Shown: positions 18 to 53,434 of the stretch, piece after piece
Numbering within the stretch: position 1 is the first letter of the stretch
Layout: every line of letters starts with the position of its first letter
Assembly (NCBI GenBank): GCA_947462335.1
Contig: OX381713.1
Coordinates: 17,724,381 to 17,788,380 of the forward strand
DNA length: 64,000 nucleotides
Origin: Harmothoe impar
Lineage: Eukaryota; Annelida; Polychaeta; Phyllodocida; Polynoidae
Direction: 5' to 3'
The notes under the pieces: generated by a model
The model's database searches: none
Seen by the model: the letters and a program-made list of their open reading frames with translations, nothing else
What the model was told of the DNA's origin: nothing
Program-made: the position numbers and the translations under genes

Positions 18-23
18 CACTCT
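18..23. repeat. Target-site duplication, left copy (CACTCT)
   Basis: CACTCT immediately precedes the left terminal inverted repeat and recurs at 13771-13776 directly after the right one. Six bp is the duplication size made by Polinton integrases. Confidence 0.85.
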
Positions 24-99
24 AGTAGTATAGTATGTATCGGAACGGGACTATGGTTAACTACTGTTTATTACTCAATCGACATGCAGCCAATCAGAG

Positions 100-430
100 G
101 CCTCCATTTGGTCACGTGACCGGAAGTGACCTACTTAGGGGATTAGTGGTGACGTCACGTGACCTAGTTAGCCAATCAGAGGCCGCCATTTGGTCACGTG
201 ACCGGAAGTGACGTCATATGACCTACTTATGGACCGGAAGTGACGTCATATGACCTACTTAGGGGACCGGAAGTGACGTCATATGACCTAATTTAGGATC
301 ACGTGACCGGAAGTGACCTGATGAGTCACGTGACCGGAAGTGACGTCACATGACCTAATGGCCAACTGGAACTGAGTGACCTCATTGAGGATCACGTGAC
401 CGGAAGTGACCTGATTGATCACGTGACCGG

Positions 431-461
<31 letters not shown>

Positions 462-480
462 GACGTCACGCGACATAATG
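100..480. promoter_or_regulatory. Array of CCAAT / E-box / ETS / CRE-like motifs in left TIR
   Basis: The array holds two AGCCAATCAGA (CCAAT-box) copies, at about 88 and 170. It also holds about eight copies of a composite in which an E-box (CACGTG), an ETS-type core (CCGGAAGT) and often a full CRE palindrome (TGACGTCA) are joined at fixed spacing. The same array lies inverted at about 13340-13690. These match the classical binding sites of NF-Y, USF/bHLH-ZIP, ETS and CREB/ATF factors. That they act as promoter/enhancer or replication-initiation sites is inference. Confidence 0.6.
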
Positions 481-749
481 AAGAGATGAGCGTCTTTAAG
501 GGGTCACATGCTTTTAAATGTGATATATATATATATTTTTTTTTTGGAGGAGGAGGAGGAGGAGGAGGAGGATAAGGAGAGGAGGAGGAGGAGGAGGAGG
601 AGGAGAAGGAGGAGGAGGCGAGTCTCTTATTTTTTTCGGTAAACTAATAAAAAACACCACGATATAAGTTTGTTTTTTTCATTTTTATTGTTTTACGAGC
701 GACTGGAAGTGACTTATTGAACTAGGTAGAAGCGTTCTTTAGAGTGTAT

Positions 750-900
750 AAGGGGGGAGGGGAGGGGAGGGGAGGGGGGGGAGGGGGGCCCCTTTAAGAT
801 GCATGGGGAGGGGGGCGCTTTTAGGATGCATGGGGCGGGTGGGGGGGGAGGGGGGGGAGGGGGGAGGGGGGCACTCTAGGGGGTGGGGGGGCACTCTAAG
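750..900 (+). repeat. G-rich tract in left TIR
   Basis: Dense runs of four to eight Gs separated by single A or short spacers, with the C-rich complement at about 12775-12925. Such runs can form G-quadruplexes; this is a sequence property, and function is unknown. Confidence 0.7.
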
Positions 901-948
901 GGGCGTTTGTCTCTTTTAAGAAAAAAAGAAAAGAAAAGATTTTAATCG

Positions 949-990
949 AGAGACACGCTTCTTCTTCTCGAGAGGAAGAAGCGTGTCTCT
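949..990. repeat. 42-bp near-perfect palindrome, inner end of left TIR
   Basis: Two 21-base arms beginning AGAGACACGCTTCTTC meet at a CTCGAG centre with one mismatch. It faces the 3' end of the death-domain gene. Possible hairpin, terminator or replication structure. Confidence 0.85.
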
Positions 991-1137
991 TCATTTTTTT
1001 TTGTTTATCACATGCTTCGATGAGGCGATCAGCTGCGACTGGAGGAAGTGACACTTTAAGAGGACACGCGTCTTAATTGTTATAATATTTTTTTTACTTA
1101 CTAATAAAGAAGACGTATGAAAATAAAACACAACAAT

Positions 1138-1878
1138 TCACATGTCCGTCGTTCTCGTTGTTTCTTGCTTGATAAAGTCAAGTAATATCGCGATGCCGAG
1201 GTCAAACTTTCCCATGTCCTCAGTCAACACTCGAAGGAGTTCAAAAGGCGTACCGCCGGCACCGTCAGCTTCAGCTTGCCACATTTTCAACACTTGGAAG
1301 GCCCACTCAGCGGGACTTCCTCCGTATTCGCATTCTTCAGCGATCTTATCTAACCTCTCAGGCGACAATTTTAAATGGTCCCCCACCTCTTTCCACCTGC
1401 TACCTAGACGTCTGCCGAGGGCGCCCAAGTGCTTATGCATCGCGCGCGAGTCGGGGTTTTCGAAATCCAACCCCTGTCTGTGGAGAAGGGTCATCCACTG
1501 AGCCAACAGTTCCACTCGTCTAATGCGGGTGAAGACGCGACCGAGCTCTCCCCATCTATGACGATGCGGGGTTTCACCCCACCAGACTCGGAACATCGCC
1601 GTACACAGCTCCTCCGGTGTCTTGACACTGCGCTCTACTAGAGCATCCATACGGGCGGCGGTAACTTTTAAGCTACTGCCCAACTCTCTCCAAGATCCGC
1701 TCAACTCTTTACCTAGTTGACGAAGCAAGGCGTCGCTATATGCTAAGCGCCGCTGTCCTACCTCTCTGTTCTCCCCATCGGTCTGCCTTGCGCGTCTCAC
1801 GTCGTCAAGCCGCATTAACTTTTTTTCAGGTGGACAAGGCGGTGAAGGCGAGCTTGAAAGTGGAATAGCTTGAGCCAT
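1138..1878 (-). CDS. Tandem death-domain protein of the Polinton-like element
   Basis: This 246-aa protein starts at an ATG with a purine at -3 and runs outward into the left TIR. After a Ser/Pro-rich tail (1-20) and a basic region come two copies of one helical module. DD1 is about residues 51-136, with the pattern LGKELSGSWRELGSSLKV, a Leu-rich helix, FRVWW and a W-x-x-L helix. DD2 is about 149-238, with LGRRLGSRWKEVGDHLKLS, VLKMW and an LLRVL helix. These are the conserved Trp/Leu positions of the death-domain fold (FADD, UNC5, ankyrin type). Death domains assemble signalling complexes in apoptosis and innate immunity by homotypic contacts. No membrane segment, signal peptide or enzymatic domain is visible. 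I infer that the protein binds host death-domain adaptors, or is a domesticated remnant of a host gene. No frameshift or stop breaks it. Confidence 0.8.
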   Translation of the reverse strand: MAQAIPLSSSPSPPCPPEKKLMRLDDVRRARQTDGENREVGQRRLAYSDALLRQLGKELSGSWRELGSSLKVTAARMDALVERSVKTPEELCTAMFRVWWGETPHRHRWGELGRVFTRIRRVELLAQWMTLLHRQGLDFENPDSRAMHKHLGALGRRLGSRWKEVGDHLKLSPERLDKIAEECEYGGSPAEWAFQVLKMWQAEADGAGGTPFELLRVLTEDMGKFDLGIAILLDFIKQETTRTTDM

Positions 1879-1890
1879 CTCGTCTCATCT

Positions 1891-1944
<54 letters not shown>

Positions 1945-1948
1945 TGGT
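1891..1948. repeat. GGC/GGT trinucleotide microsatellite in the 5' leader of the death-domain gene
   Basis: About 13 GGC units followed by GGT-type units, just upstream of the ATG at 1878 on the opposite strand. Confidence 0.9.
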
Positions 1949-2003
1949 AGTAGACGTTACTGTGGTCAGAGGCGATATGGTTTTTTTCCAACAGAAATCA
2001 GAG

Positions 2004-2011
2004 CTTTTATA
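2004..2011 (-). promoter_or_regulatory. TATA box for the death-domain gene
   Basis: On the minus strand this reads TATAAAAG, about 125 bp upstream of the ATG at 1878. The predicted start of transcription is near 1975-1980, followed by a short leader containing a CCG/GCC repeat. Confidence 0.5.
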
Positions 2012-2464
2012 CAGAGGGAGTTTAATCCTATTTCCAACAGCACTCCAGCTGTCTAGCGACCTGTCCGCATGACGCCTTTTCAGCCGCTCCGCTCCTTAAG
2101 AGCTTAGATGACGAGGGGTATGTCATCGCTATCCGTGGAGACCAGCTGAAAACGGTGTTTTTTCCTCATCCATAGCCTTACCTCCTACCCCCTACCTGAG
2201 GACGCCTCCCTCCCTCTGACATTCATTGTAACAAACGTCAGAGGTCAGGTGAAAATCGGATTTTTTCATGCACAGCCTTAGTCAGCTGTCACCCCTATTG
2301 AACTAGCCGGCCGCCGCCGGCCGGCCCGGTCTACTCACCACGGCAGGAGGCGGTGATTTTTTTTTGTCTTACACTTAAGTCGCTCACCACATGCACACGC
2401 CTCTACTCACAGACAGACACGTTCGTCTTAGGGGGTCCTGCTTCACGCCACACGCCTCCTGTAG
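2012..2464. other. Central region, left half (non-coding)
   Basis: No supported gene. It contains CCAGCTGAAAACG at 2142-2154, which recurs twice upstream of the rightward genes (6204, 6378). A GC palindrome rich in GCCGGC lies at about 2305-2330. The region ends at the poly(T) of the nested LINE. Confidence 0.5.
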
Positions 2465-5400
2465 TTTTTTTGTATTTTTTTGGACGTGTTTATTTACATT
2501 AATCCATCTTGACGAGGGTTTAAATAATGCTTACAAACAGTTACCATTTTTTGTATATATCAATCAAAACAACAATGTGCATTATAACGGGGCATGTAGC
2601 CAACAGTGGCTGTATGTTATATACAATGATGAGTTTGTACACTCCTATTATTTACACTGGCGATCGTACACGGTCTTGCTTTGTAAATTCACTCAGTGAT
2701 GATATAATTGTATAATAAGGCGGTTGGAATTATTTCTCATAAATAACATGGTAGAAGCTAGAGGCAGTGACAATGACAATGACAGTCATATTTGTAAATA
2801 TGAAAATAATAGAGTGGATGGGTACAAAAGTATGATGTACAATAATAAGAGTTATGACTATGTTTTAGCTAGTCAATAAAATCACATCACTATATGTTTT
2901 TTCACAATCCGTTAATTGTAACCTTTTTTGATCTTTTCTCTCAGGTTTTTTATCTTGTTTATTTCCAGTTTAAATTTGACTTTGCTCGTGGCCCTCTGGA
3001 TGCTGGATGGTAGTGCATCCCACAACACAATACCTCTATAGTATGGTGATCTTTTATAAAAATGGCCTACCAAATGTGGTAGTTTGAATGTAATCTTGGC
3101 ACTATTCCTCATTACCATTTGTTCAACATTATTTATACCATCTTCAGCACCATTACCTATTTTCAATGATCTCGTATACATAAGACTTAAAAGTAACTTA
3201 TCCATTCTGCGCTGTACCATTTCTATTTTACACAAATCATGAAGCTCATCAACATGGTATTTCCGTATATTACACTTGAGACATATTCGAAGAGCCCTAT
3301 TTTGTAACCTTTGCAGTTGCTTGAGCCCATCTTCGTTACAGCTAGTAGAAATAAAACTACAGTATTCCAATATTGGGCGAATTGTACATTTGTATACCAG
3401 TATACTATAATCTCTTGTTAACCATTTTCTTAGGTTGGCGAACCTAAACAATTTATTGCAAATATTTCGTTTCAATAATTTAATTTGCTTATCAAAAGAT
3501 AAGCTACTATCAATTGTGACACCTAGATAAGGAAAGTGTAATACAGTTTTGACCTGCTGCCCACAGAACTCAATTTTAGTATCAGGGCACCTTTTCAGCT
3601 TGTGTTTGCTGGCGAACCACATGTATTCAGTTTTCCTAGGATTAATAGTTAGCCTATTGTTATACACCCATTCAGTGAATAATAAGGATTCACTTAACAA
3701 TACCTCTTCCACTTTGTGGACATCTTTGTCAGCATAATAAATAACTATATCATCCGCATACAGTTTAATGGTTGATTGTTCCATGATTTTTGTTACATCA
3801 TCTATGTACAAGACAAACAATAAAGGTCCTAAAACTGAACCCTGGGGTACTCCATAATGAACCTTTTTTGAATCAGAGACGCTCCAGGCAAATGTTGTCC
3901 GTTGACTCCTATTTTGTAAATAACTTTCAAACCATTTGAAATTTTTAAAAGCAAATCCTAATTTTGCAATTTTTTGTAAAAGTTTAGAATGTATAACACT
4001 ATCAAATGCTTTAGTAAAATCGACAAACAAGGCACCACATACTTTGCCTTCATTTCTATAGCTATACAGGTCATTAACAAGATCAAAAGTGGCATCTCCT
4101 GTACCTGAACCTCTCTTATAACCGTATTGGTTTTCACTGAAATTTCCACTTCTTGTCATATGTTCACTAAGGAAATTATATATAACCTTTTCTAATACTT
4201 TCGAAGTAACAGGCAATAAAGAAATAGGTCTCCAATTTTTTACATTACTAAGGTCCCCATCTTTTGGAATAGGTTTTACTAAGGCATCCCCCCACTTACG
4301 AGGAAATATGCCCGTATTCACGCTTACCTGACATAAGTGTGTGAAATGGTCTATTAAGCACAGTAAGGCTGAGATCAGTATATCACATCTTATCCCTTCA
4401 ATACCTGACGATTTATGCTTATCCAGATCCTTGATTATATAATAGACACTCCATTTTGAGATAACTAAGCTAGGTATGTCCTTGTAAACATAATTAGACT
4501 CATCAACAGTTTCATAATTGTCTAACAACTTTTGATTTTCACCTACTATTTTTGTATGCAATTTTTCACCTATTTCTGTGAAATAATTATTTACAAACGT
4601 AGCAGCATCATCAGTTGGGATGACATTTCCAGTGTCATGATCCTTCAAGTCTGGGTAAATTATTTCTCCACCACAGTTAAATAGCTGATTTATATGTTTC
4701 CAGAATTTACGTGGATTTGCATAGTTTTGATCTAATTCTCCAGTAATTCCCCCTTTTTTTGATGCCTTTGACATCCTATCAATTCTTCTTCTGCATGCCT
4801 TGATGGCTGCCCATTGTTCAGGTCTTTGTTCAACACGGTATATATTTAGCCAGGTTTCCCTTTCAAATATTACATCCATGATTTCCTCATTCATCCAGCA
4901 CTTGTGTCTATCTTTGACTACCCGTTCAATATATGGACAATGTTTATCTAGATAACCTTCTATAGGTATTAGAAATCTATCCCATAGTTCATTAGGGTCT
5001 TCTCTCATATCATAATAGTCTCCCCAGTCATAATTATTGAGGCAAGTGAGGAAGTCCTTTTCCTTGAAATTCCTGTAATCCCTGCCTTTAAATGTAACTG
5101 TATCAGATTCATAGGTTACATCCCCTCTACGTGCAAAAACAGGTATATGATCAGACATAAGAGCACTAAGTATGCCACTCCTAGTGACCCTGGTACTATT
5201 AGTTATTATATTGTCTATACATGTCCCACTATAGGGCCTAGTAGTTGCAGTGATCAAAATCTTCCAGCCTACATCTTTACATAGATTTCTAAATTGCTCA
5301 CTACCAGTGCAATCATCATCATTCATATTCAGATTTATGTCACCAAGAATCCATGTCTCATGACGGCCATTGCTGACATCATTGTCATATCTGGCAATTT

Positions 5401-5827
5401 TATTTAGAAATGCTATGAATCTAGAGTAAGTGGCTGCATTCTTCTTAGGGATCCTGTAAATGCTGACAATCAGCATTTGCTTTTCCCCAGGTAATGATAA
5501 TAGAATAGTAATGGCTTCATAATCTTCAGTGATTATAGTTAGATCATTAATTAACGTACAGTATTTAGCAAAATTTGAAGTAACACTTATTGCTACCCCC
5601 CCTGCCTTCTTATGCAGTCTATCATGTCTATACAATACTCTGCCTGGTATATTAATCATGCCCGTATCAATGCTTGTTTTAAGCCAAGTTTCATTCAAGC
5701 ACATGATATTGCTCCTACCCAATAATTTATATATTTGCTCCTTCTTCCCATCAAAACTTCTACAATTCATTGCTGAGAAGACCAACCCCTTCTGGTTCTT
5801 GAACTCCTGTAGACTAAGAGCCATCAT
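2465..5827 (-). mobile_element. Non-LTR retrotransposon (APE-type LINE) nested in the Polinton-like element
   Basis: The minus-strand element ends in a poly(A) tail (T-rich run at 2465-2483 on the plus strand), with an AATAAA signal at 2489-2494 and a roughly 430-nt 3' UTR. The left flank CTCCTGTAG (2456-2464) recurs at 5804-5812 and could be the target duplication. That would put the 5' end inside the start of the ORF. The residues encoded there, however, also align with the second LINE of this window, so the 5' boundary is uncertain and could reach about 6050. The insertion interrupts the central non-coding region, not an identified gene. Confidence 0.8.
2912..5827 (-). CDS. LINE ORF2: endonuclease-reverse transcriptase
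   Basis: This 971-aa intact ORF has an N-terminal apurinic-type endonuclease (about 14-235), with an N-C-R-S start, NETWLK near 45, GDINLN near 165 and SDHIPVF near 225. A central region follows, then the reverse transcriptase (about 470-770) with NWRPISLLP, VDFTKAFDS near 605, GVPQGSVLGP near 660 and the catalytic YADD near 690. The C-terminal part has a RGIVLWDALP motif typical of Jockey/CR1/Rex1-group LINEs. It nicks target DNA and primes reverse transcription of its own RNA. No separate ORF1 (gag-like) is present, so this may be a 5'-truncated copy. The lack of stops suggests recent activity. It resembles the ORF at 56747-59587 along its length but is clearly a different family. Confidence 0.93.
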   Translation of the reverse strand: MMALSLQEFKNQKGLVFSAMNCRSFDGKKEQIYKLLGRSNIMCLNETWLKTSIDTGMINIPGRVLYRHDRLHKKAGGVAISVTSNFAKYCTLINDLTIITEDYEAITILLSLPGEKQMLIVSIYRIPKKNAATYSRFIAFLNKIARYDNDVSNGRHETWILGDINLNMNDDDCTGSEQFRNLCKDVGWKILITATTRPYSGTCIDNIITNSTRVTRSGILSALMSDHIPVFARRGDVTYESDTVTFKGRDYRNFKEKDFLTCLNNYDWGDYYDMREDPNELWDRFLIPIEGYLDKHCPYIERVVKDRHKCWMNEEIMDVIFERETWLNIYRVEQRPEQWAAIKACRRRIDRMSKASKKGGITGELDQNYANPRKFWKHINQLFNCGGEIIYPDLKDHDTGNVIPTDDAATFVNNYFTEIGEKLHTKIVGENQKLLDNYETVDESNYVYKDIPSLVISKWSVYYIIKDLDKHKSSGIEGIRCDILISALLCLIDHFTHLCQVSVNTGIFPRKWGDALVKPIPKDGDLSNVKNWRPISLLPVTSKVLEKVIYNFLSEHMTRSGNFSENQYGYKRGSGTGDATFDLVNDLYSYRNEGKVCGALFVDFTKAFDSVIHSKLLQKIAKLGFAFKNFKWFESYLQNRSQRTTFAWSVSDSKKVHYGVPQGSVLGPLLFVLYIDDVTKIMEQSTIKLYADDIVIYYADKDVHKVEEVLLSESLLFTEWVYNNRLTINPRKTEYMWFASKHKLKRCPDTKIEFCGQQVKTVLHFPYLGVTIDSSLSFDKQIKLLKRNICNKLFRFANLRKWLTRDYSILVYKCTIRPILEYCSFISTSCNEDGLKQLQRLQNRALRICLKCNIRKYHVDELHDLCKIEMVQRRMDKLLLSLMYTRSLKIGNGAEDGINNVEQMVMRNSAKITFKLPHLVGHFYKRSPYYRGIVLWDALPSSIQRATSKVKFKLEINKIKNLREKIKKGYN

Positions 5828-6104
5828 AGAGGTCTCTTAGAGCTACCATTACCAGGAGGGTATGTACAAGATGATGATCACTAACAAAAAGCATTAAGGG
5901 TGCTAGGATATTTACAGTAACGTGCGAGTCAACGGGACTCCTTAAGCTTAAATTATACACCACACATGTGCATTGTAGTGTACAGATAAGGACAAGCCTT
6001 AGCTTATTATAAGCTAAATAGCCTGCCCTTAGCCCCCCTCCCATACTATTCGGCTGGTCTGTTGCTAATTAAAGATTAGAAGACACACTCTAAGCTCATC
6101 ACCG
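5828..6104. other. Junction region between LINE and promoter repeats
   Basis: No supported gene. Either the LINE 5' untranslated region or the right-hand continuation of the Polinton-like central region. Confidence 0.4.
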
Positions 6105-6447
6105 TTAATCCTTTATACAGCTAACGCGCGTTGAATTGCTGAACAGGGTGGTAAGTAGCTTAGCTCATGACAGTGGATCCCTCAAAAAAGAGGGGAAAGG
6201 GATCCAGCTGAAAACGTCATACCTTATGTCTTTTGTTTCTCTTTGTGAATGGCCGCCGGTCAGTCGGCGGCAGCAACCGCTTAATCCTTTATACAGCTAA
6301 TGCGCGTTGAATTGCTGAACAGGGTGGTAAGTAGCTTAGCTCATGACAGTCGATCTCTCAAAAGGGGGGAAAGGGATCCAGCTGAAAACGTCATGCCTTA
6401 TGTCTTTTGTTTCTCTTTGTGAATGGCCGCCGGCCAGCCGGCGGCAG
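6105..6447 (+). repeat. Two tandem copies of a 176-bp unit upstream of the rightward genes
   Basis: 6105-6280 and 6281-6447 are about 95% alike. Each carries TTAATCCTTTATACAGCTAA, a GGATC-flanked A/G-rich block, CCAGCTGAAAACG, and a GC hairpin; the one at 6426-6445 is a perfect GCCGCCGGC-CA-GCCGGCGGC stem. A duplicated upstream regulatory or replication element is likely. Confidence 0.85.
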
Positions 6448-6492
6448 CTGAACAGGGGCAGTAAGTAGCTTAGCTCTAGAAGGGAGAAGGCG

Positions 6493-6531
6493 TATATAAG
6501 GGGCCTGGAAACCTCCATTCACTCACTCAGT
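6493..6531 (+). promoter_or_regulatory. TATA box and initiator of the rightward gene
   Basis: TATATAAG at 6493-6500 is followed about 27 bp later by TCAGTC (6527-6532 region), a good initiator match. The first ATG is at 6559 in an ACCACCATG context. Confidence 0.65.
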
Positions 6532-6558
6532 CTTTTGCTGCTCTCTACAGTCACCACC

Positions 6559-6732
6559 ATGAGCAAAAGACAACACCTAGCGCCGTCCAAGGATCTAAGC
6601 AAGTTCAAGAACAAGAAGACTACGCGGAACAGCGCTCGTTTAGCGTCAGTGCCTCCTCTTGCTACTGAAAATGAGACTACCGCCGCATCCGCTTGGTCTT
6701 ATCACCCTCCCGCTGTAGCGAGCGCTCGCAGC

Positions 6733-6776
<44 letters not shown>

Positions 6777-7449
6777 TAGTACTACTGGTAGTAGTCGTAG
6801 TGCTAGCGACGTTGTTACACTCGCGACGGTACACGTTGCTGCTAAGCGCGCTGCCGCTGCTACTGCCGCCCCGCCTCCTGCTGCTGCTGCTGCTGCTGGT
6901 GATCCTCGTGCTGCGGCTGCTGCTGCTGCTGCTGCACCTGCTACTGCTACGCCTGCTACTGCTGCGCCTGCTGAGGCTGCTGCGCCTGCTACTGTTGCGC
7001 CTGCTGCTGCTGCTGCTGCTGCTGCTTCTGCTGCACCTGCTGCTACCGCTACTACTACTGACGACAACGCTCCTGGCACAGCGCAGTACTGGCAACCGGG
7101 TTTTTACTTCCCCACTACTGTTGATGATTTTGATGACCTGCCGCACGTTGCACAGCCCCTCTCCACCACTACATCGACCGACGCCCTCGACGCCGCTCGC
7201 GCTGAGAGTTACAGCTATTCGGACACTCAGCCCCTAAACCAAGAAGAAGAGGAGGAGGAGGAGGAGGAGGAGGAGGAGCAGCAGCAACAGGGTGAGACAG
7301 AGAACGACGCTGACGACGAGGCGTACGAAGAACCCGAAGGGAAAGGGGCGGACGGTACGTTTCTTCGGCTCCCCTCTTCCACAGCTTTCGACCTCACTTC
7401 CACTGGTAGCGCGTCCGGTCCGTGGCGACTGCCCTCACCGCCACCTTAG
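6559..7449 (+). CDS. Low-complexity Ser/Ala/Glu-rich protein, first part of a longer frame
   Basis: The start was chosen at the ATG with a strong Kozak context, 60 bp downstream of the TATA box. The 296-aa product has a basic N-terminus (KRQ...KFKNKK) and a poly-Ser block from a TAG/AGT microsatellite (about 60-90). An Ala/Pro-rich block follows (about 100-165), then a more ordinary acidic stretch and a poly-Glu/Gln run (about 230-250). The frame closes with TAG at 7447-7449 but stays open in the same frame for another 723 nt (next entry), so this is probably the N-terminal half of a larger nuclear protein. I do not recognise a folded domain here. It could supply a terminal-protein or structural role, but nothing in the sequence shows that. 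Confidence 0.6.
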
Positions 7450-8172
7450 GAGGGCGGCGGCGCTTCATCTTCTACCGCTACACTCAGCACCGACGGCGTG
7501 TGGCTGCGCTGTTCCAACAACGAGGTCTCGGATACCACCAGCGCTGACGCTGCTCCTGTTATCGGTTCTGCTGCTGATTCAGCTCACGCTGATGGTGTTA
7601 CTCTTCTTGCGGGTCTGAAACGTTCTAAGGTGAGTTCCAGAACAACAAGGCCTACTAAGAAGAGAAAAATACAAGAAAAAGAACGAGATGGACGAGAAGA
7701 AGCAGAGAAAACCTCCCGGCCTCTCGGGTTAGAGTTCTGCTTAGACAGGACTTTGACGCTGGAGATCTGGGAGGACGTGGCTAGACTGTCTAGGAGGCCG
7801 CGCTACACAAAAGACGGCCAGGTGAAAGAGGCGTCTCTGACCAGAAGCAAGCGAGTGCACTTCACTGCCGAAGCGCTGCGCGAGCTAATAGCACGCATCG
7901 CCGATATCCGCGCAGTGGTGCGCATACGCGACACAGCGTCCGCGCAAGGAAGACCTAATCACACCCCCTGGTTCGCAGTGCTGGATGAGGAGGGCAAAGT
8001 GTACGCAGCTGTGAGCTACTACAGCGGTAAGAACCTCATCCACGTGCGCAAGTACGAAGGTCCTGACAAAAAACCCACACAGCAGGGGGTGACGCTGTCC
8101 GCTAGAGCGCTCAAAGAGTTGGATGACAAAACAGAGATTATTCTCAAATTTCTCGGTATAGATTTGGAATGA
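7450..8172 (+). CDS. PC4-like ssDNA-binding protein region, in frame after an amber stop
   Basis: The 240 codons continue the frame of the upstream ORF directly after its TAG and contain no ATG at all. Expression must therefore come from stop readthrough, splicing or a non-AUG start, or the TAG is a mutation. A Ser/Thr-rich linker and a KKRKIQ nuclear-localisation-like motif precede two related halves. The first begins FCLDRTLTLEIW and ends in an FTAEALRELIARI helix. The second has the strand pattern of the PC4/p15 C-terminal domain (LIHVRKYE, then GVTLSARALKELDDK). PC4 domains bind single-stranded DNA and act in transcription and replication. Next to a protein-primed polymerase, a role in coating displaced strands is a reasonable inference. 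The stop codon is followed by microsatellites, then the polymerase frame. Confidence 0.65.
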   Translation, partial: EGGGASSSTATLSTDGVWLRCSNNEVSDTTSADAAPVIGSAADSAHADGVTLLAGLKRSKVSSRTTRPTKKRKIQEKERDGREEAEKTSRPLGLEFCLDRTLTLEIWEDVARLSRRPRYTKDGQVKEASLTRSKRVHFTAEALRELIARIADIRAVVRIRDTASAQGRPNHTPWFAVLDEEGKVYAAVSYYSGKNLIHVRKYEGPDKKPTQQGVTLSARALKELDDKTEIILKFLGIDLE

Positions 8173-8221
8173 GAGACGCTCAACGCTCACGCGCGCACAC
8201 ACACAGCGTTTGACGTACGCT

Positions 8222-8312
8222 GTATGAGACAGACAGACGGATACACAGACAGCAGACAGATAGATAGATAGACAGATAGATTGATTGATAGATAGATAGA
8301 TAGTTAGACAGC
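8222..8312 (+). repeat. GACA/GATA microsatellite between PC4-like and polymerase genes
   Basis: Imperfect AGAC and AGAT tetranucleotide repeats fill most of the 168-bp spacer between 8172 and the ATG at 8341. Confidence 0.9.
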
Positions 8313-8340
8313 TAAGTAGTTGGTAACTGAGTGAAAAAAC

Positions 8341-8997
8341 ATGACGCAGTACGTATGCGAAAAGTGTTTCAAAATTTTTAAAAGACCGTACAACCACGAG
8401 AGACACGTAGAAAATTGTAGAGTAATACCTAAGTTTTGCCCTCTATGCGGCAAAGGCGATTGCCGAAAGATCGCCTGTCGACGCGAATCTCTGGACGGGG
8501 TGACCATCCCTCCGCGCATATGTGCTGTACCGAACGGGGAGGAAACGTTCACGGCGAATTGGCCTGCGATACAAACGGGCGTCATGATGCACGGGACTCG
8601 CATGAGTGTAACAAACTTCAGGCTACCAACCGGCGAGTTGAGTGACGCTGTAGATACTATGCGTCGCATTCACTTGACACAAAGATTCAGATACAAAGTG
8701 GGTTTCTCGGTAGGCTTACTCTTACAACACAGAGAAGACAAGAGCAAACTGCGCTACTTTCACGCCTCCCAGAACAACGCAACTCTCATACAACCGCTCC
8801 CTACTATAACTAATTCAGAAACTTTGGAAGAGCTCCTCTCAAAGATGGAAAACACCGTCGCTTGCGAGGAAGTACGGAAACTTTGCGACGCTGACACCAA
8901 GTGGCACGTTCTTTTTCCTACCAATTTGAACATTTGCGTTTACATGGGACCGGGGGAATTTCCCATAGGCGGTAGGATCACTCAGGCGGCGTGTTAG
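8341..8997 (+). CDS. N-terminal segment of the family B DNA polymerase (zinc fingers), out of frame with the rest
   Basis: The 218 codons start at an ATG. They open with a C2HC-type finger (YVCEKCFKIFKRPYNHERH) and a second Cys cluster (CPLCGKGDC). An unrecognised alpha/beta region follows, resembling the N-terminal extension of the large polymerases of this element class. The frame ends at TAG 8995-8997. The polymerase body continues in the -1 frame, which is open from 8976 on. The next residues there (PNKDNLCIFRC) are what this family carries at this point. Either a 1-bp lesion has split one gene or translation shifts frame. No canonical slippery heptamer is visible at the junction. Confidence 0.75.
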   Translation: MTQYVCEKCFKIFKRPYNHERHVENCRVIPKFCPLCGKGDCRKIACRRESLDGVTIPPRICAVPNGEETFTANWPAIQTGVMMHGTRMSVTNFRLPTGELSDAVDTMRRIHLTQRFRYKVGFSVGLLLQHREDKSKLRYFHASQNNATLIQPLPTITNSETLEELLSKMENTVACEEVRKLCDADTKWHVLFPTNLNICVYMGPGEFPIGGRITQAAC

Positions 8998-11900
8998 ATT
9001 TTCCCAACAAGGACAACCTCTGCATCTTCCGCTGCATTTCCTTTCACTTATACAACACCAGCAAGCGCGCTTCAGATTTGTTACGTCAGTTCTGTCCCGC
9101 TGCCACACCTGAATCCTTTCCGGGTTTGAACATCCGCGACTTACCCGCGTTAGAGAACTTGTTTGACGTACAAATAGCGGTTTACACCGCGTCGCGTCAG
9201 GTGCCGGGGCGGAAGTTGAGAAGACGCGTTACTCTGATCAGACCGCCTTCCAGAACTCTGGCCGCCCGAGGTAAAGTCAACCTACACCTGACGGCAAAAG
9301 GTGGTTTGCACGTCTCTCTCGTCACGGACTTCAACGCGTACGCGGGCATATACGAATGTTGCAAGTGTAAGGCGGCGTTCACCACCGAGTTCTTGCTGAA
9401 GAGACACAGGAACCAGCTTTCCTCTTGCCGACAAGTCAAGTTGCGCTACGTAGGTGGCATCTACCAAAATTCGAGAACGATTTTCGAAGCGCTAGCAGAC
9501 TTCTCCATTTTTCCCCCCGACGGACATTCCGGAATCTACCCTTACAAGATTGCCTTCGATTTAGAGGCTTTCTTCAGACCGTGCAAAGAACTGTCGACGG
9601 AACACGTGTCCCTGCTGTGGGATCACGTCCCTTTGTCGGCTAGCGTCGCATCCGACTTTCCGGGGTGGGAGGGGCCCGTCTGCTTCGTCAGAGAATCCGA
9701 CGCAGATTCCGACCCCTTGTTGGATCGAGTTTTAAATCACATAAACGAGAACGCCAAAGTCATCGGGGAAGCTGTGCTAGAACTTTACCGACCGACGTTA
9801 GCGAAGTTAGATGCGGCGATAGGTGAAGCTCTCCTGCTGGAGGAGGCGACATTCACCCCTTCTCCAGGCGGCTTCACTGCGGCTCAGACCAGACACCCGT
9901 TAGTTCAACTGAAGAAGCGTCTTCTGAGATACATCCGTCAAGCTCCAGTCGTGGGCTTCAACTCGGGGCGTTACGACTTGATCAAAATACGCCTTCACTC
10001 GTTCTTTGCCTCCGGAGACCGAAGAAACCAAGAATTCAGCGTCATAAAGAGAAGCAATCAATACTTGGCGGTTTACACACAGCACACGGTTTTCTTGGAC
10101 GTAGTCAACTATTTGGCACCCGGTTACAACTACGCAACCTATTTGCGAGCTTTCACCAGGAATGAAGAGAAAGGTCACTTTCCTTACGAATGGATGACGT
10201 CTACCAGGAAACTGGCAAACAGAACACTGCCACCGAGATCGGCTTTTGACAGCGAACTGACAGGCGTCAAAATGTCCGAATCCGACTACGCCGCATGTCA
10301 GAAAGTTTGGTCCGACGAGAAGATGCAAACTATGGAAGATTACTTGATCCACTACAACAACAAAGACGTCAAACCTTTCATAGAAGCTCTGAAAAATCAC
10401 GCTAAATTTTTCCAAGATCGCGGCATTGACATGTTGAAAGACGGAGTTTCTCTCGCCGGTTTGACTTTACGGTTCCTCTTCCAAAACCTAGAAGACGCGT
10501 TCACAACGTTCCCCCAGTTCGACGCCGTCCTCCACGCTCTGATCAAAGAAAATCTAGTCGGCGGTCCTTCCATCATCTTCCATAGATTTCACGAGAAGGG
10601 CACCACGCGGATAAGGGAGCACAAGTACGGCGAAGAAGCGAGACCGTGCCAACACATCCTAGGACTAGACGCTAACTCTCTGTACTTGCGCTGCATGAGC
10701 GAAGCGCACTGCGCGGGCTATTACGCGGTGAGACGACCTGAGACCGAGTTCAAGCCCGAAATTAGGCAAAGAAACTCTCACAGCGCTTTGGAGTGGTTAC
10801 GCTTCGTAGAGCACGACCGCGACGTGAAACTGCGCCACGCTTTGAACGGCGGCGAGATGATTGTAGGCTGTCGGAGAATTCGCGTGGACGGGTTTCACGC
10901 GGCCTCTAATACGGTTTTCCAGTTTCACGGGTGTTGGTTCCACGCTCACGAGTGCATACCGTCGCACCGATATCAGTGCGCTTCACTGAGGGAGGAGAGA
11001 CGCGACAGAACGACTAGAGTAAGCGCGTACCTGAAAGCGCTAGGTCACAAGCTGGTCGTCGTGTGGGAGTGCGAATGGAGAGAGATGAAGCGTCGAGATG
11101 AGCGGGTTAAGGCCTCCCAACAACGCTGGAAGGTTGACGCTTTGAAAGTGTCTCGAAACGCGATGAGCGAGAGCGACATCCTTTCCGCTGTGAAAGACGG
11201 GAAAATGTTCGGTTTAGTTCAAGTGGACATCACTACGCCGCCTCACCTACGACACTACTTCGAAGAAATGACCCCCGTTTTCAAGAACGCGACCGTTTCA
11301 AAATCGGACATAGGACCTCACATGTCAGACTTTGCGCAGGAAGAAAAGCTGTTGAACACCCCTCAGAGATGTCTGATAGGGAGTTACCACGGAAAAAATA
11401 TTCTCTTGGGAACGCCGCTTCTCAAGTGGTATTTAGAGCACGGTTTGATAGTCACCAAAGTGCAGCTGGTCGTAGAATACCTACCTAAACGCTCCTTTGC
11501 CGGTTTCGCGGACGAAGTAACGGCGGCGCGAAGACGTGGCGACGTGAACGAGAACGAGAAAATTCTGTCAGACTGTTACAAGTTAATGGGAAACGCTACG
11601 TACGGTAAAACAATCTGCAACAAAGAAAAACACACGGCGGTGAGATACACTGACAGTCGGAAGTTCGAACTATTGGCCAATTCGTGGCGCTTCAAAAAGG
11701 CGTCCGAGTTGAGTTCTGATCTGTTTGAAGTCGAACTACAACTGAAAACAGTCAAGAACAACCTCCCTATTCAAATAGGGTTCATGGTATACCAGTACGC
11801 GAAGTTGAAAATGTTAGAGTTCACATACGACTTCTTGGATAGATTCGTCGATCGGCGCGATTATGCCCTTTGTCAAATGGACACCGACAGTCTTTACATG

Positions 11901-12437
11901 GCTCTCAGCGGTGACACGTTGGATGACCTAGTCAAACCTCGCCTGAGAGAGACGTACTTCAGAGAGAAACGAAAGTGGATTCCGACAGCGGTGTGCGACG
12001 ATCACTTAGAGCTTTTCGTGAAGACAAAAACGGAAAGAGTGCGAGAATGGTGTCCGCCGCCCGGCGGATGTTGTGAGAGACGGTACCTTCACGATCTGAG
12101 AACTTCGGGGCTTATGAAAGCGGAGTGGGAAGGTGACGGGATCCTAAGTCTCAACCCTAAGACTTACATTTGCTACGATCGAGTCAGCGGCACCGGTGAA
12201 AGAAAATCCAAAAAATGGAGTGCAAAAGGCGTACAGAAGAAACAAAACCCTAAGGAACCAGACGACTTCTTGGATGTTCTTCGCCAACGAAAAACTCTCA
12301 TTGCTGTAAATAGAAATTTCAAAGTGGTGCGAAACAAAATGGTCACCTACACCATAGAGAAAGACGGTGTGCGCTACTTGTATTATAAGCGTCGCGTGCA
12401 TTCTGACGGTGTGACAACGAGTCCTTTAGAGATATGA
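8991..12437 (+). CDS. polB: Family B DNA polymerase (protein-primed type), main body
   Basis: The frame has 1,148 codons, with no ATG at its beginning. Near the N-terminus is DNLCIFRCIS, resembling the DGNCLFR signature of OTU-type cysteine proteases, with a candidate His near 107. A C2HC finger follows (about 122-146). The 3'-5' exonuclease has FDLEAFF (D190/E192), FNSGRYD (N324/D329) and a Y-x3-D at 455-459. The polymerase motifs are LDANSLY (about 560), KLMGNATYG (864-872) and MDTDSLY (964-967). Between motifs A and B, residues about 632-700 form a Vsr-like endonuclease module (VDGF, FHGCWFHAHEC, VVVWECEW). The large spacing around motif A fits the TPR1/TPR2 insertions of protein-primed enzymes. 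It would replicate the linear element from its ends. Apart from the break at its start the frame is intact. Confidence 0.92.
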   Translation: MLDFPNKDNLCIFRCISFHLYNTSKRASDLLRQFCPAATPESFPGLNIRDLPALENLFDVQIAVYTASRQVPGRKLRRRVTLIRPPSRTLAARGKVNLHLTAKGGLHVSLVTDFNAYAGIYECCKCKAAFTTEFLLKRHRNQLSSCRQVKLRYVGGIYQNSRTIFEALADFSIFPPDGHSGIYPYKIAFDLEAFFRPCKELSTEHVSLLWDHVPLSASVASDFPGWEGPVCFVRESDADSDPLLDRVLNHINENAKVIGEAVLELYRPTLAKLDAAIGEALLLEEATFTPSPGGFTAAQTRHPLVQLKKRLLRYIRQAPVVGFNSGRYDLIKIRLHSFFASGDRRNQEFSVIKRSNQYLAVYTQHTVFLDVVNYLAPGYNYATYLRAFTRNEEKGHFPYEWMTSTRKLANRTLPPRSAFDSELTGVKMSESDYAACQKVWSDEKMQTMEDYLIHYNNKDVKPFIEALKNHAKFFQDRGIDMLKDGVSLAGLTLRFLFQNLEDAFTTFPQFDAVLHALIKENLVGGPSIIFHRFHEKGTTRIREHKYGEEARPCQHILGLDANSLYLRCMSEAHCAGYYAVRRPETEFKPEIRQRNSHSALEWLRFVEHDRDVKLRHALNGGEMIVGCRRIRVDGFHAASNTVFQFHGCWFHAHECIPSHRYQCASLREERRDRTTRVSAYLKALGHKLVVVWECEWREMKRRDERVKASQQRWKVDALKVSRNAMSESDILSAVKDGKMFGLVQVDITTPPHLRHYFEEMTPVFKNATVSKSDIGPHMSDFAQEEKLLNTPQRCLIGSYHGKNILLGTPLLKWYLEHGLIVTKVQLVVEYLPKRSFAGFADEVTAARRRGDVNENEKILSDCYKLMGNATYGKTICNKEKHTAVRYTDSRKFELLANSWRFKKASELSSDLFEVELQLKTVKNNLPIQIGFMVYQYAKLKMLEFTYDFLDRFVDRRDYALCQMDTDSLYMALSGDTLDDLVKPRLRETYFREKRKWIPTAVCDDHLELFVKTKTERVREWCPPPGGCCERRYLHDLRTSGLMKAEWEGDGILSLNPKTYICYDRVSGTGERKSKKWSAKGVQKKQNPKEPDDFLDVLRQRKTLIAVNRNFKVVRNKMVTYTIEKDGVRYLYYKRRVHSDGVTTSPLEI

Positions 12438-12659
12438 AAAAAAAAATAAGCGTGTTATTGCTTGATTGAGTGCATCTTTTCAAAAATAGAGTGTTTATCA
12501 AGATTGAAAAAAAAAGAAATAAAAAAAAAAAAAAAATTATTGTTGTGTTTTTATTTTCATACGTCTTCTTTTACTAGTAAGTCGCGCAGTCTCTTAAAGC
12601 GTCACTCATGTGACAACGTCGCTTCCAGTCACGTGATCCTAAAGACCCTCACTTCCTAA
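12438..12659 (+). terminator. 3' untranslated region of the polymerase gene with polyadenylation signal
   Basis: AATAAA near 12515 lies in an A-rich stretch 80 bp after the stop codon. The remaining sequence to 12659 is weakly similar to the inner edge of the left TIR (1005-1136). Confidence 0.5.
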
Positions 12660-12674
12660 ACAAAAAAAAAATGA

Positions 12675-12716
12675 AGAGACACGCTTCTTCCTCTCGAGAG
12701 GAAGAAGCGTGTCTCT
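12675..12716. repeat. 42-bp perfect palindrome, inner end of right TIR
   Basis: Perfect palindrome with two 21-base arms around CTCGAG; counterpart of 949-990. It lies about 240 bp downstream of the polymerase stop codon. Confidence 0.9.
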
Positions 12717-13245
12717 CGATTAAAATCTTTTCTTTTCTTTTTTTCTTAAAAGAGACAAACGCCCCTTAGAGTGCCCCCCCACCCCCCTAGAGTGCCCCCC
12801 TCCCCCCTCCCCCCCCTCCCCCCCACCCGCCCCATGCATCCTAAAAGCGCCCCCCTCCCCATGCATCTTAAAGGGGCCCCCCTCCCCCCCTCCCCTCCCC
12901 TCCCCTCCCCTCCCCTCCCCTCCCCCCTTATACACTCTAAAGAACGCTTCTACCTAGTTCAATAAGTCACTTCCAGTCGCTCGTAAAACAATAAAAATGA
13001 AAAAAACAAACTTATATCGTGGTGTTTTTTATTAGTTTACCGAAAAAAATAAGAGACTCGCCTCCTCCTCCTTCTCCTCCTCCTCCTCCTCCTCTCCTTA
13101 TCCTCCTCCTCCTCAGCCTCCTCCTCCTCCTCCTCCTCCTCCTCCTCCTCCTCCTCCTCCTCCAAAAAAAAAAGAAATATATATCACATTTTAAAGCGCG
13201 TGACCCCTTAAAGACGCTCATCTCTTCATTAAGTCGCGTGACGTC

Positions 13246-13276
<31 letters not shown>

Positions 13277-13338
13277 CTTCTTCTTCTTCTTCTTCTTCTT
13301 CTTCTTCTTCTTCTTCTTCTTCTTCTTCTTCTTCTTCC
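13246..13338 (+). repeat. TTC microsatellite (about 32 units) in right TIR
   Basis: Pure TTC repeat; its left TIR counterpart (GAA, about 430-460) has only about 10 units. Confidence 0.95.
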
Positions 13339-13339
13339 G

Positions 13340-13690
13340 GTCACGTGATCAATCAGGTCACTTCCGGTCACGTGATCAATCAGGTCACTTCCGGTCACGT
13401 GATCCTCAATGAGGTCACTCAGTTCCGGTTGGCCATTAGGTCATGTGACGTCACTTCCGGTCACGTGACTCATCAGGTCACTTCCGGTCACGTGATCCTA
13501 AATTAGGTCATATGACGTCACTTCCGGTCCCCTAAGTAGGTCATATGACGTCACTTCCGGTCCATAAGTAGGTCATATGACGTCATTTCCGGTCACGTGA
13601 CCAAATGGCGGCCTCTGATTGGCTAACTAGGTCACGTGACGTCACCACTAATCCCCTAAGTAGGTCACTTCCGGTCACGTGACCAAATGG
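13340..13690. promoter_or_regulatory. Array of CCAAT / E-box / ETS / CRE-like motifs in right TIR
   Basis: Inverted copy of the left array (100-480), with the CACGTG, ACTTCCGG and TGACGTCA motifs repeated and CTGATTGGCT (inverted CCAAT) near 13612 and 13694. Confidence 0.6.
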
Positions 13691-13770
13691 AGGCCTCTGA
13701 TTGGCTGCATGTCGATTGAGTAATAAACAGTAGTTAACCATAGTCCCGTTCCGATACATACTATACTACT

Positions 13771-13776
13771 CACTCT
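13771..13776. repeat. Target-site duplication, right copy (CACTCT)
   Basis: Same six bases as 18-23, directly outside the right terminal inverted repeat. Confidence 0.85.
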
Positions 13777-21410: not shown

Positions 21411-23416
21411 ATGTGTCCTAAACCCCCCGAAAAAATGCCCGAGGGGCCTACAGTGTCATTTTTTACTGTGAATCCAACCTTCACAGAGTGGCAGGCTGCA
21501 CACCCATGGTCTGGAGCAAGTTTATCTAACCCCCCCGGTTCAGTGACGACCAGCAACTCGCCATCGTCAACTCTGACGACGATCAACATGGCTACTACAC
21601 CCTCGCCCCCAGCCCTCGGGCTTATACAACCCCCTCTGCTGCTGGGAAACGACGACTTACATGATTTTGTAATGTCAGCTAAGAATGTCAACACGTCTAA
21701 GAAGACCCGACAGGTGTGTATTGGGATTTTTTTTTTTTGGGGGGGCGTGTTGTGTACTTTAAAAGTATCATTGTTTGTTCATTTTTTGAGACGCTGATGA
21801 ACTTTTTCCACACAGAATTTCAGGCATTTTCAAATAAGTCATTTATAATTTACTAATCTATACATTTCTTTCATTTCAAGGTGGTCAATGCGTTCCAAGC
21901 GTGGCTAAGTAAGTTCTGCCAGGAAAATGGCCCATACATACCATAATGGCAGGGGAGCTAGATGGGTTTATAGCCAACTACCTACCCCTTAAAAGGAAAA
22001 AGAACGGTGAGGAGCACGAACCAGATACGCTGACCTCCATTCACAAAGGAATTCTAGGTAAACTATTATAGGATTAATTTATTTTTTAAATCTAATATGG
22101 TTTTTATAAAAAGAAAAGTGTTATTTTAGAGACGTATTTTTATGAGTAAGTTAGGAACACAGTTTATGATTTTATGATGTTTTTCCTTGAATAAACAGCC
22201 CCTTAAATATTTGTTTCCCCCTTTTTTTCAGGCACTTGAAGGAGAAGAGGTACCCTGTTGACCCCCTCACTCATGAAGAATTTGAAATGTCAAGGGGAGT
22301 GCTGTCGTCAAAACGAATCAAATTGAAGGAAAGTGGTAAAGGCAATAGGCCAAATAAAGCTGAGTGTATTGATGACGAGGAGATGCGCCAACTTTGGGAA
22401 ACTAATGCTCTAGGCACCTCCAGCCCCCGCCATCTTCAGTATACGTTATACTTCATATTAACCATGGCTTTTGGTCAGCGAGGGGCTCATGAAGCAAAGC
22501 AAATGTATTGGGGTGATGTGGAGCTGCTTGAGGACGCAGAGGGTACTCCATATTTGGAATTCAACGAGAAAGTGACAAAAACTCGTCAGGGCAATAGTGA
22601 TCCTCGTCCCTTCCCCCCGAAAATTTTCGCTACAAATGATGACCATTGTCCAATCTTTCTATATCACATGTTCAAGAACAGGAGGCCAATGCAACAGATG
22701 CAGGAGGATTCTCCATTCTATCTAACCCCCCTTCCTGGAGCCACAATGCAGGACGACGTAGCATACAAATGTGGAGACGGCATGGGGGTCAACACTCTAA
22801 GTAAAATCGAGTTCGTTTGCAATGCTGGAGGGCTGGTAGGTAGAAAGACGAACCACAGTCTGCGTAAGACCAGTTGTCAAACTCTAATGGCAAACAATGT
22901 CCCCCCTGTTTTGGTTGCCCAGTTGAGTGGACATAAGAATTTGCAGTCATTGAACGCCTACACGAGTGCCACAAGAGAGCAGCAACGCGCCATGTTCAAC
23001 ATCATCACGGGGAAGGGAAAAAGTAAAAGAAACCTACCTTCTGCCATGGGCGCACCGCCTGTTAAAAGGCTCGGCATGTCCTGTGAGGGTGGATCCGGGG
23101 ATAATCCTCCAGTGCAAGTACTCCAGGGGGTGACCAACCCTACTTGCAAACCAATGGATCTGGGCATTCAGCAGTGGGGGACAGCGACCCCGGCCCAAAC
23201 GCAAATTTGCCTTCAGCCATTGTCAACAATTGTGATCCTGCACCGCGCCATGGCCCCTCCTCGAGCCAAGTGTCCCATGTTGATCAGCTCGCACAGTCCG
23301 CAAGAGGGATGTTTGCCAATGCAACCATAACTGGAAACATTAACCTCACCTTCAACTACAATGTGTGCAACTCTACAGGCGTGACAACAAATATGGATGC
23401 CGTGATGGCTGATTAA
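21411..23416 (+). pseudogene. Crypton-type (DUF3504/KIAA1958-like) tyrosine recombinase, three exons, frameshifted
   Basis: Exon 1 (21411-21713) ends at CAG|GTGTG. Exon 2 (21881-22057) follows a TTTCATTTCAAG acceptor. Exon 3 starts at 22232 after a poly-T/CAG acceptor. Exon 3 holds all catalytic residues of a tyrosine recombinase: Arg in FGQRGAHE (residue 82 of the frame opening at 22236), HSLR (207/210), GHK (233) and Tyr in SLNAY (242). These catalyse DNA strand cutting and rejoining in Crypton transposons and their domesticated relatives (KIAA1958, ZMYM, QRICH1). Exon 2 changes frame around 21945-21965, the exon 2/3 phase does not fit, and the usual C-terminal tail (GNINLTFNYNV) lies in another frame (23144-23413). 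So this copy appears decayed, although the catalytic exon is open for 364 codons. Confidence 0.8.
22236..23330 (+). CDS. Open catalytic frame of the Crypton-type tyrosine recombinase
   Basis: 364 codons without a stop encode the DUF3504-type recombinase core: an N-terminal SAM-like/core-binding stretch (1-50), then the catalytic domain (about 55-255). No ATG is at the start, because it is an internal exon. After about residue 300 the frame loses family resemblance, which reappears in the +2 frame. Confidence 0.75.
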   Translation: MKEKRYPVDPLTHEEFEMSRGVLSSKRIKLKESGKGNRPNKAECIDDEEMRQLWETNALGTSSPRHLQYTLYFILTMAFGQRGAHEAKQMYWGDVELLEDAEGTPYLEFNEKVTKTRQGNSDPRPFPPKIFATNDDHCPIFLYHMFKNRRPMQQMQEDSPFYLTPLPGATMQDDVAYKCGDGMGVNTLSKIEFVCNAGGLVGRKTNHSLRKTSCQTLMANNVPPVLVAQLSGHKNLQSLNAYTSATREQQRAMFNIITGKGKSKRNLPSAMGAPPVKRLGMSCEGGSGDNPPVQVLQGVTNPTCKPMDLGIQQWGTATPAQTQICLQPLSTIVILHRAMAPPRAKCPMLISSHSPQEGCLPMQP

Positions 23417-41144: not shown

Positions 41145-41148
41145 GCAT

Positions 41149-41563: not shown

Positions 41564-41576
41564 CTACCCCCCCTAG
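41564..41576 (-). promoter_or_regulatory. Polypurine tract
   Basis: The minus strand reads CTAGGGGGGGTAG directly before the 3' LTR, the expected plus-strand primer position. Confidence 0.8.
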
Positions 41577-42287: not shown

Positions 42288-42408
42288 CGAGGTGCTCTCC
42301 TCTTCATCTTGGACGACTGAGTGAGTTGCTCTCCTCTTCATCTTGGACGACTGAGTGAGGTGCTCTCCTCTTCATCTTGGACGACTGAGTGAGGTGCTCT
42401 CCTCTTCG
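42288..42408 (+). repeat. 34-bp tandem repeat, 3.5 copies, near the 3' end of the gypsy element
   Basis: Unit GTGCTCTCCTCTTCATCTTG + GACGACTGAGTGAG, nearly identical copies. Confidence 0.9.
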
Positions 42409-53414: not shown

Positions 53415-53434
53415 CTGACTGCTACTCGAAACTG

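What the first reader, a model, noticed from the sequence alone, without database searches (positions are those of the whole stretch)
1138..1878. A selfish DNA element encodes a tandem death-domain protein
The protein lies wholly inside a bounded Polinton-like element and shows two death-domain-like modules (W63/W99/W109 and W162/W200 with matching Leu positions). Known virus-encoded members of the superfamily include viral FLIPs (death-effector domains) and poxviral pyrin-domain proteins. A double death-domain protein carried by a polymerase-encoding transposon suggests decoy inhibition of host cell death or innate signalling, or cargo captured from an expanded host repertoire. The fold call is from sequence pattern; the function is inference.
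Basis: partly seen in the sequence, partly recalled or inferred. Interest (0 to 1): 0.92.

Follow-up and report, generated by a model that had tools for sequence, protein, structure and literature searches.

The report
Jumping gene carrying a death-domain protein
A ten-kilobase jumping gene, found in what look like a couple of thousand closely similar copies in one animal genome, carries its own protein that appears to be built from two copies of the "death domain" which animal cells use to switch on cell suicide and immune alarms, and it may use it against its host's defences.

Summary
The minus-strand gene 1138-1878 (246 aa) matches Pfam Death (E 1.6e-8, two stretches). It lies in an element at 24-13770 with ~1-kb inverted repeats and a 6-bp target duplication; without a LINE-like insertion in this copy the element is ~10.14 kb.

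It behaves as a core gene. A 37-mer from it has 2,381 places in the window's 1.51-Gb genome (control 0). All 10 copies chosen by PolB carry it. Of 20 chosen by the 37-mer, all on one scaffold, 19 have PolB at the expected distance, 19 a perfect 6-bp duplication, 17 an open frame. dN/dS between subfamilies is about 0.3; shared changes show constraint, private ones none.

It is not a canonical Polinton: integrase, protease, ATPase and capsid were not found.

The fold is not shown: models had pLDDT 41.6 and 53.5 and Foldseek found no death domain. Function, probably blocking host death-domain signalling, is inference. My paper searches found no death-domain gene in a Polinton-like element.

The parts
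24..13770 (.). the element, as interrupted in this copy by a LINE-like insertion (10.14 kb without it)
   Evidence: inverted repeats, flanking 6-bp duplication, comparison with copies lacking the insertion, arithmetic
18..23 (.). left target-site duplication CACTCT
   Evidence: same 6 bp at 13771-13776; other copies: 8 of 8 with both ends readable (of 10) and 19 of 19 (of 20) have perfect 6-bp duplications
13771..13776 (.). right target-site duplication CACTCT
24..1007 (+). left terminal inverted repeat; weaker, gapped similarity continues to about 1137, next to the stop codon of the death gene
12657..13770 (-). right terminal inverted repeat
1138..1878 (-). tandem death-domain gene (246 aa), one uninterrupted frame
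   Evidence: same place in other copies
1510..1710 (-). death-like domain 1 (residues 57-123)
   Evidence: Pfam Death on residues 1-135 alone, E 0.0014, below gathering; profile resembles FADD death domain, E 0.0025
1225..1407 (-). death-like domain 2 (residues 158-218)
   Evidence: best stretch of the whole-protein Pfam match; profile resembles RIPK1 death domain, E 0.0011
2006..2011 (-). TATAAA box 133 bp upstream of the death gene's ATG
   Evidence: TATAAA found 133-149 bp upstream in 11 of 11 copies checked, window included; promoter activity not shown
2476..6082 (-). LINE-like insertion (RVT_1) in this copy; not a part of the element proper
   Evidence: Pfam RVT_1 E 5.3e-36. Copies lacking it: 9 of 10 rows show window 2471 followed by 6083 (the tenth row was cut off by my listing), 7 of 7 lack it, six with 2475 next to 6083 and one (L005) resuming at 6276
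6493..6500 (+). TATATAAG box of the rightward gene set
   Evidence: 11 of 11 copies
6559..7449 (+). low-complexity protein (296 aa from the ATG), no family found
7498..8172 (+). protein with a PC4/p15-like C-terminal domain (E 1.8e-5, 24.6 bits, just under the cut-off of 25)
8341..12437 (+). PolB (PF03175); 1375 aa in P0005; in this copy it is split between two reading frames

Best explanation
What it is (about 0.95): a core gene of a very successful DNA-polymerase-encoding transposon, not a host gene that happens to lie there. How it works (about 0.5, inferred): PolB copies the element as linear DNA outside the chromosome, and such DNA, or the breaks made on insertion, would set off host death or innate signalling. 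The element expresses from its own TATA promoter a short adaptor-like protein of two death domains and nothing else. By like-with-like death-domain binding it caps host adaptors of the FADD/RIPK1 kind and stops the signalling platform from growing, so the cell survives long enough for new copies to insert. Shown: gene, domains by sequence profile, element, copies, selection. Inferred: expression in a relevant cell, binding partner, direction of the effect, and protein-primed replication (family knowledge, recalled).
For: Pfam Death E 1.6e-8 with two stretches, and whole-protein scores above the cut-off with two stretches in P0003, P0004 and P0125. No other Pfam family reaches its cut-off in P0001, so no caspase, kinase, DED, CARD or TIR domain is recognised. 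Domain 2 is nearest RIPK1 and domain 1 nearest FADD among solved structures, weakly (E 0.0011 and 0.0025). 2,381 genomic places of a 37-mer of the gene at up to 2 mismatches, reversed-pattern control 0. Of 150 scored protein matches (of 3,969 first-look candidates), 148 have no internal stop; all are listed over residues 1-246. Same place in 10 of 10 copies chosen by PolB; PolB at the expected distance in 19 of 20 chosen by the 37-mer. dN/dS 0.30-0.32 between subfamilies, against 0.12 for PolB, 0.53 for the PC4-like gene and 0.43-0.45 for the low-complexity gene. In 26 intact copies, changes shared by copies are 11 synonymous and 12 nonsynonymous (p 0.006 against neutral); private changes are 4 and 14 (p 1.0). 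Death relatives at 97/78/57% run parallel to PolB relatives at 98/77/65%.
Against: Neither model is confident (pLDDT 41.6 and 53.5), and Foldseek of the domain-2 model against PDB returned 44 weak matches, none described as a death domain (best E 1.2). Each half alone scores below Pfam's gathering score. In the profile search of solved structures protoglobins appear at E 0.024 and above, among weaker FADD entries. The difference between private and shared changes is not itself significant (Fisher p 0.11). An earlier sample of 34 copies showed constraint on private changes too (15 synonymous, 11 nonsynonymous), but most of those copies were picked for protein similarity. Host pathway, partner and expression were not tested. 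The pairing of each death relative with a PolB relative is assumed: the searches give no genomic context.
Confidence: 0.5

Rival explanations
1. The death-domain protein switches host signalling on (pro-survival or proliferative NF-kB type) instead of blocking it, giving the element cells that divide and live.
For: Same sequence evidence. Viral FLIPs are described as regulating apoptosis, NF-kB, interferon and necroptosis pathways (PMC5580472, passages).
Against: No effector domain was recognised; nothing here tells activation from inhibition.
Confidence: 0.2
2. The helical modules were recruited for the element's own business, for example as a replication, terminal-protein or transcription accessory, with no role in death signalling.
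For: Only four genes were recognised in the element, so an essential replication partner is plausible; the gene goes with PolB in 10 of 10 and 19 of 20 copies. Weak PDB matches include THO complex subunit 1 (E 0.11), recalled as a nuclear mRNP protein with a death domain.
Against: The best-scoring sequence relatives are signalling death domains, and the gene has its own divergent promoter-like region.
Confidence: 0.2
3. Passive cargo: a host death-domain gene caught by chance, without function for the element.
For: Host origin of the domain is likely in principle (inference).
Against: Constraint on shared changes and between subfamilies; presence in 10 of 10 copies chosen by PolB; relatives at 57-58% identity that are full length (P0004, P0125) keep both domains.
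Confidence: 0.05
4. A pro-death or addiction function, killing or punishing cells that lose or silence the element.
For: Selfish elements with killer genes exist in general (recalled); no result here points to it.
Against: No effector domain and no antidote candidate recognised beside it.
Confidence: 0.05

Closest known systems
Polinton/Maverick elements (polintoviruses)
   Same: long inverted repeats, 6-bp duplication, family-B polymerase of the PF03175 kind; [quoted passage not shown]
   Different: no integrase, cysteine protease, packaging ATPase or capsid found; about 10 kb against the 15-25 kb given as typical in PMC6431247 (section 10)
Adintoviruses
   Same: polinton-like PolB-encoding relatives; [quoted passage not shown]
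   Different: said there all to encode an integrase; the words 'death' and 'TRADD' do not occur in that paper's main text; here a death-domain gene in an element without recognised integrase or capsid
viral FLIPs, e.g. MC159 and MC160 of molluscum contagiosum virus
   Same: protein with two tandem modules of the death-fold superfamily encoded by a parasite genome (PMC5580472 passages)
   Different: those are death EFFECTOR domains; here the match is to the Death family, and the genome is a transposon without recognised capsid genes
Burro giant Gypsy retrotransposons of planarians
   Same: a mobile element with apoptosis-related domains (BIR, BCL2-like) suggested to meddle with host systems (PMC6431247 passages)
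   Different: LTR retrotransposon, other domains, BIR within a giant ORF1 polyprotein; here a separate gene in a DNA element
Bidnaviruses
   Same: polintovirus-derived PolB with terminal inverted repeats, and a hypothesised apoptosis inhibitor, NS3 (PMC4061559 passages)
   Different: viruses with a capsid gene and an SF3 helicase; their NS3-like proteins have a zinc-finger motif

Membership tests
Death domain (PF00531) | profile match above the curated cut-off | tested here: met
   35 bits against 22.6, E 1.6e-8 for the whole protein; met too by P0003, P0004 and P0125, while the truncated P0126 (18.7 bits) is below it
Death domain (PF00531) | two separate copies, each above the cut-off | tested here: inconclusive
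   two stretches and hhalign 95.7 between halves, but halves alone 19.1 and 20.1 bits, under 22.6
Death domain (PF00531) | six-helix death fold | tested here: inconclusive
   all-helical models but pLDDT 41.6 (4 sequences) and 53.5 (domain 2 alone, 5 sequences; five helices); no death-domain match by Foldseek for the second
Polinton/Maverick | long terminal inverted repeats and 6-bp target duplication | tested here: met
   19 of 19 copies with both ends readable, of 20, and 8 of 8, of 10; that 6 bp and AG...CT ends are the Polinton signature is recalled
Polinton/Maverick | PolB | tested here: met
   PF03175 E 1.3e-6 in the window, E 3.7e-7 in P0005; the relative P0007 gave no Pfam family at E 0.1
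Polinton/Maverick | RVE integrase, C5 protease, packaging ATPase (core genes according to PMC3671162, passages) | tested here: not met
   no such domain in the element's main ORFs scanned (PHROGs); overlapping and shorter ORFs were not scanned; only about 1.1 kb of non-LINE DNA lies between the divergent genes
Polinton/Maverick (polintovirus) | major and minor capsid proteins | tested here: not met
   no Pfam or PHROG capsid match among the element proteins scanned
viral FLIP | tandem death effector domains | tested here: not met
   matches Death; no DED family listed at E 1
viral FLIP (works like) | blocks host death signalling by binding adaptors | not testable with these tools
   needs expression and binding assays

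The most novel reading that the evidence does not exclude
A four-gene, capsid-less, integrase-less self-copying DNA transposon that spread to about 2,400 copies in one animal genome with a dedicated death-domain decoy that keeps the host cell alive while the element replicates as free DNA. It would be a stripped-down polintovirus that became a pure genome parasite, kept its counter-defence gene, and inserts either by a borrowed integrase or by the Vsr-like nuclease domain built into its polymerase.
Probability: 0.35. Interest if true: 0.92.

Novelty: new variant of a known kind. Interest (0 to 1): 0.8.

Why it matters
Viruses that must survive inside animal cells often carry death-fold decoys; transposons are usually thought not to need them. 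Here a transposon with no recognised capsid or integrase keeps a tandem death-domain gene under selection and may make up about 1.6% of a 1.5-Gb genome (24.1 Mb if all 2,381 hits are 10.14-kb copies). If the protein blocks host signalling, it would show that DNA transposons face, and counter, cell-death or innate DNA-sensing defences, and the young copies would make that testable. It would also make transposons a possible source of new death-domain genes for hosts.

Tried and rejected
Structure: the full protein with 4 sequences and domain 2 alone with 5 sequences gave low-confidence models; Foldseek of the second gave no useful match. Viral contigs: scans with P0001, PolB, the PolB alignment A2 and the death alignment A3 confirmed no relative. 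Rfam: nothing at gathering score in the window. PHROGs: nothing for the death protein at E 0.01. LINE target duplication: no shared word of 14 bp or more between 1885-2920 and 5831-6540 (made before the insertion limits were known). Bacterial death-like domain bDLD3: below its cut-off (17.2 against 27.1 bits), rejected. Passive cargo: disfavoured by the selection results. An early estimate of constraint from 34 copies is set aside because 27 of its 37 candidate loci came from the best-scoring protein matches. Literature: 'polinton' + 'death domain' 0 papers; 'adintovirus' / 'death domain' with either term, none of the 8 listed of 11,571 has both, though papers with more terms come first; 'death domain' + 'Maverick' + 'transposon' 1 paper, on arbovirus vectors, search listing only; two/tandem death domains, transposable element, virus-encoded: the 8 listed of 268 hold neither death-domain term. 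Starrett et al. 2021 on adintoviruses was not seen. Host species: not identified. Not answered: count of PolB copies, count of the terminal repeat, and the host's own death domains.

Full report
Observation. The minus-strand ORF at 1138-1878 encodes 246 aa. Pfam Death matches it at E 1.6e-8 with two stretches. The halves alone score 19.1 and 20.1 bits, a little under Pfam's 22.6, but they resemble each other (hhalign 95.7 against at most 2.8 in 50 column-shuffled controls). A profile of six homologues finds RIPK1 (domain 2, E 0.0011) and FADD (domain 1, E 0.0025) first among solved structures; an entry named GPX62 (E 0.023) and protoglobins (E 0.024 and above) follow. The fold itself was not shown: two AlphaFold runs with 4 and 5 sequences stayed at pLDDT 41.6 and 53.5, and Foldseek found no death domain for the second.

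The element. Inverted repeats at 24-1007 and 12657-13770 are nearly identical over the outer 410 bp (two mismatches) and are flanked by CACTCT on both sides. The death gene reads outward into the left repeat, and gapped similarity between the two ends runs up to its stop codon. On the other side of a region with two divergent TATA boxes lie a low-complexity protein, a PC4-like protein and PolB, reading outward to the right. A LINE-like insertion at 2476-6082 is in this copy and in none of the 16 others where the listing shows the junction: 9 of 10 rows, where the tenth row was cut off, and 7 of 7. Without it the element is 10.14 kb. PolB in this copy is split between two frames relative to its relatives. 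No integrase, protease, ATPase or capsid domain was found in the element's main ORFs; overlapping and shorter ORFs were not scanned.

Copies. The window lies in an unnamed 1.51-Gb genome of 736 contigs. The 150 scored protein matches, of 3,969 first-look candidates, cover residues 1-246 at 98-100% identity; 148 have no stop. A 37-mer of the gene has 1,199 + 1,182 = 2,381 places within two mismatches, and none when the pattern is reversed. PolB: 34 scored matches of 7,573 first-look candidates, all shown at 100% (rounded) to a public protein, P0005.

Linkage. Ten copies were chosen because PolB was intact and on the plus strand. All ten carry the death gene at the same place: nine as one full-length match, one in two pieces; eight of the ten are open from the expected start. 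Eight had a recognised left end, and eight of eight show a perfect 6-bp duplication (read from the flanks printed). A second sample was chosen by the 37-mer: 20 of the places listed (only the first ones are listed, all on scaffold C1), spread along it by eye. Nineteen of 20 have PolB's C-terminus at the predicted distance, 19 have both ends, 19 of 19 duplications match and no two are alike, and 17 keep an open frame from the start. L061 lacked PolB and the right end at the expected distance and was not followed further.

Selection. Between the window's subfamily and the other one, dN/dS of the death gene is 0.30-0.32, against 0.12 for PolB, 0.53 for the PC4-like gene and 0.43-0.45 for the low-complexity gene. 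Among 26 intact copies (17 from the 37-mer sample, 8 from the PolB sample, and the window), changes seen in two or more copies are 11 synonymous and 12 nonsynonymous (p 0.006 against the neutral expectation). Changes private to one copy are 4 and 14, as expected without selection. The contrast between the two classes is not significant by itself (Fisher p 0.11), and the earlier, biased sample of 34 did not show it (15 and 11 private, 14 and 14 shared). The later sample is what one expects of a gene selected in the element's replicating lineage and released after each insertion. Mean pairwise divergence is 0.17% among 18 sampled copies of one subfamily and 0.81% among 8 of the other, so the spread is recent.

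Relatives. Five homologues were found, at 97, 78, 57, 58 and 57% identity (the last over 47% of the query), all from ENA assemblies; 1,987 and 8,000 candidates were scored. The 97% one matches copies of this genome at 99.6%, so it probably is this species. PolB relatives at 98, 77 and 65% form one clade (SH-aLRT 100; quick tree of 70 rows, midpoint root, with a composition warning that includes P0005). The parallel identities suggest that the two genes travel together, but their contigs could not be seen.

Mechanism. The best-supported reading is a short adaptor-like protein that binds host death-domain proteins and blocks platform assembly while PolB makes extrachromosomal copies. Everything after 'death domains by profile, encoded and kept by the element' is inference. 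Activation of survival signalling and a non-signalling accessory role remain open at about 0.2 each.

Comparison. Polintons are described as having a core of PolB, integrase, C5 protease and ATPase (PMC3671162 passages); only PolB was found, so this is not filed as a Polinton, although ends and duplication are alike. The nearest functional parallels are the anti-apoptotic homologues mentioned for mammal-associated adintoviruses (PMC11071296 passages and abstract), tandem-DED viral FLIPs (PMC5580472 passages) and the BIR/BCL2-bearing Burro retrotransposons (PMC6431247 passages and section 10). Passages of PMC8363768, PMC4061559 and PMC12721341 were also seen. No paper in the held library joins 'polinton' and 'death domain'.

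Noticed in passing
about 10910-11140 (PolB; residues 866-942 of P0005): A Vsr-like (very-short-patch mismatch) endonuclease domain is built into PolB: PHROG endonuclease E 7.4e-7, solved Vsr structures E 0.0033-0.0039. Several D, H, C and E columns in and beside it are invariant in the 18 PolBs of alignment A2; that they are Vsr's catalytic and zinc residues is recalled. It might serve the integration of an element that lacks an integrase.
   Followed up: partly
88-433 and 13361-13706: The outer inverted repeats are arrays of short motifs such as CACGTGAC, ACCGGAAGTG, TGACGTCA and AGCCAATCAG, which look like animal promoter sites (USF, ETS, CREB, CCAAT; names recalled).
   Followed up: no
41146-53868: A Gypsy-type LTR retrotransposon with two 418-bp repeats 99.8% identical, pol at 46510-50595 and an ORF with a zinc knuckle at 50685-53414: another recent insertion.
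   Followed up: no
22191-23330: ORF of 379 aa with DUF3504 (E 2.8e-16) and Phage_integrase (E 3.3e-7): a tyrosine recombinase, Crypton-like by recall.
   Followed up: no
59928-61299: Tandem array with a period of about 52 bp, just beside a LINE with endonuclease and RT domains at 56747-59587.
   Followed up: no
L013:352-701: The left end of this copy abuts a reversed piece of the same repeat, so a second, partial end lies head to head with it.
   Followed up: no
P0126: A shorter relative breaks off within domain 2 with an altered tail: splice form, decay or assembly artefact.
   Followed up: no
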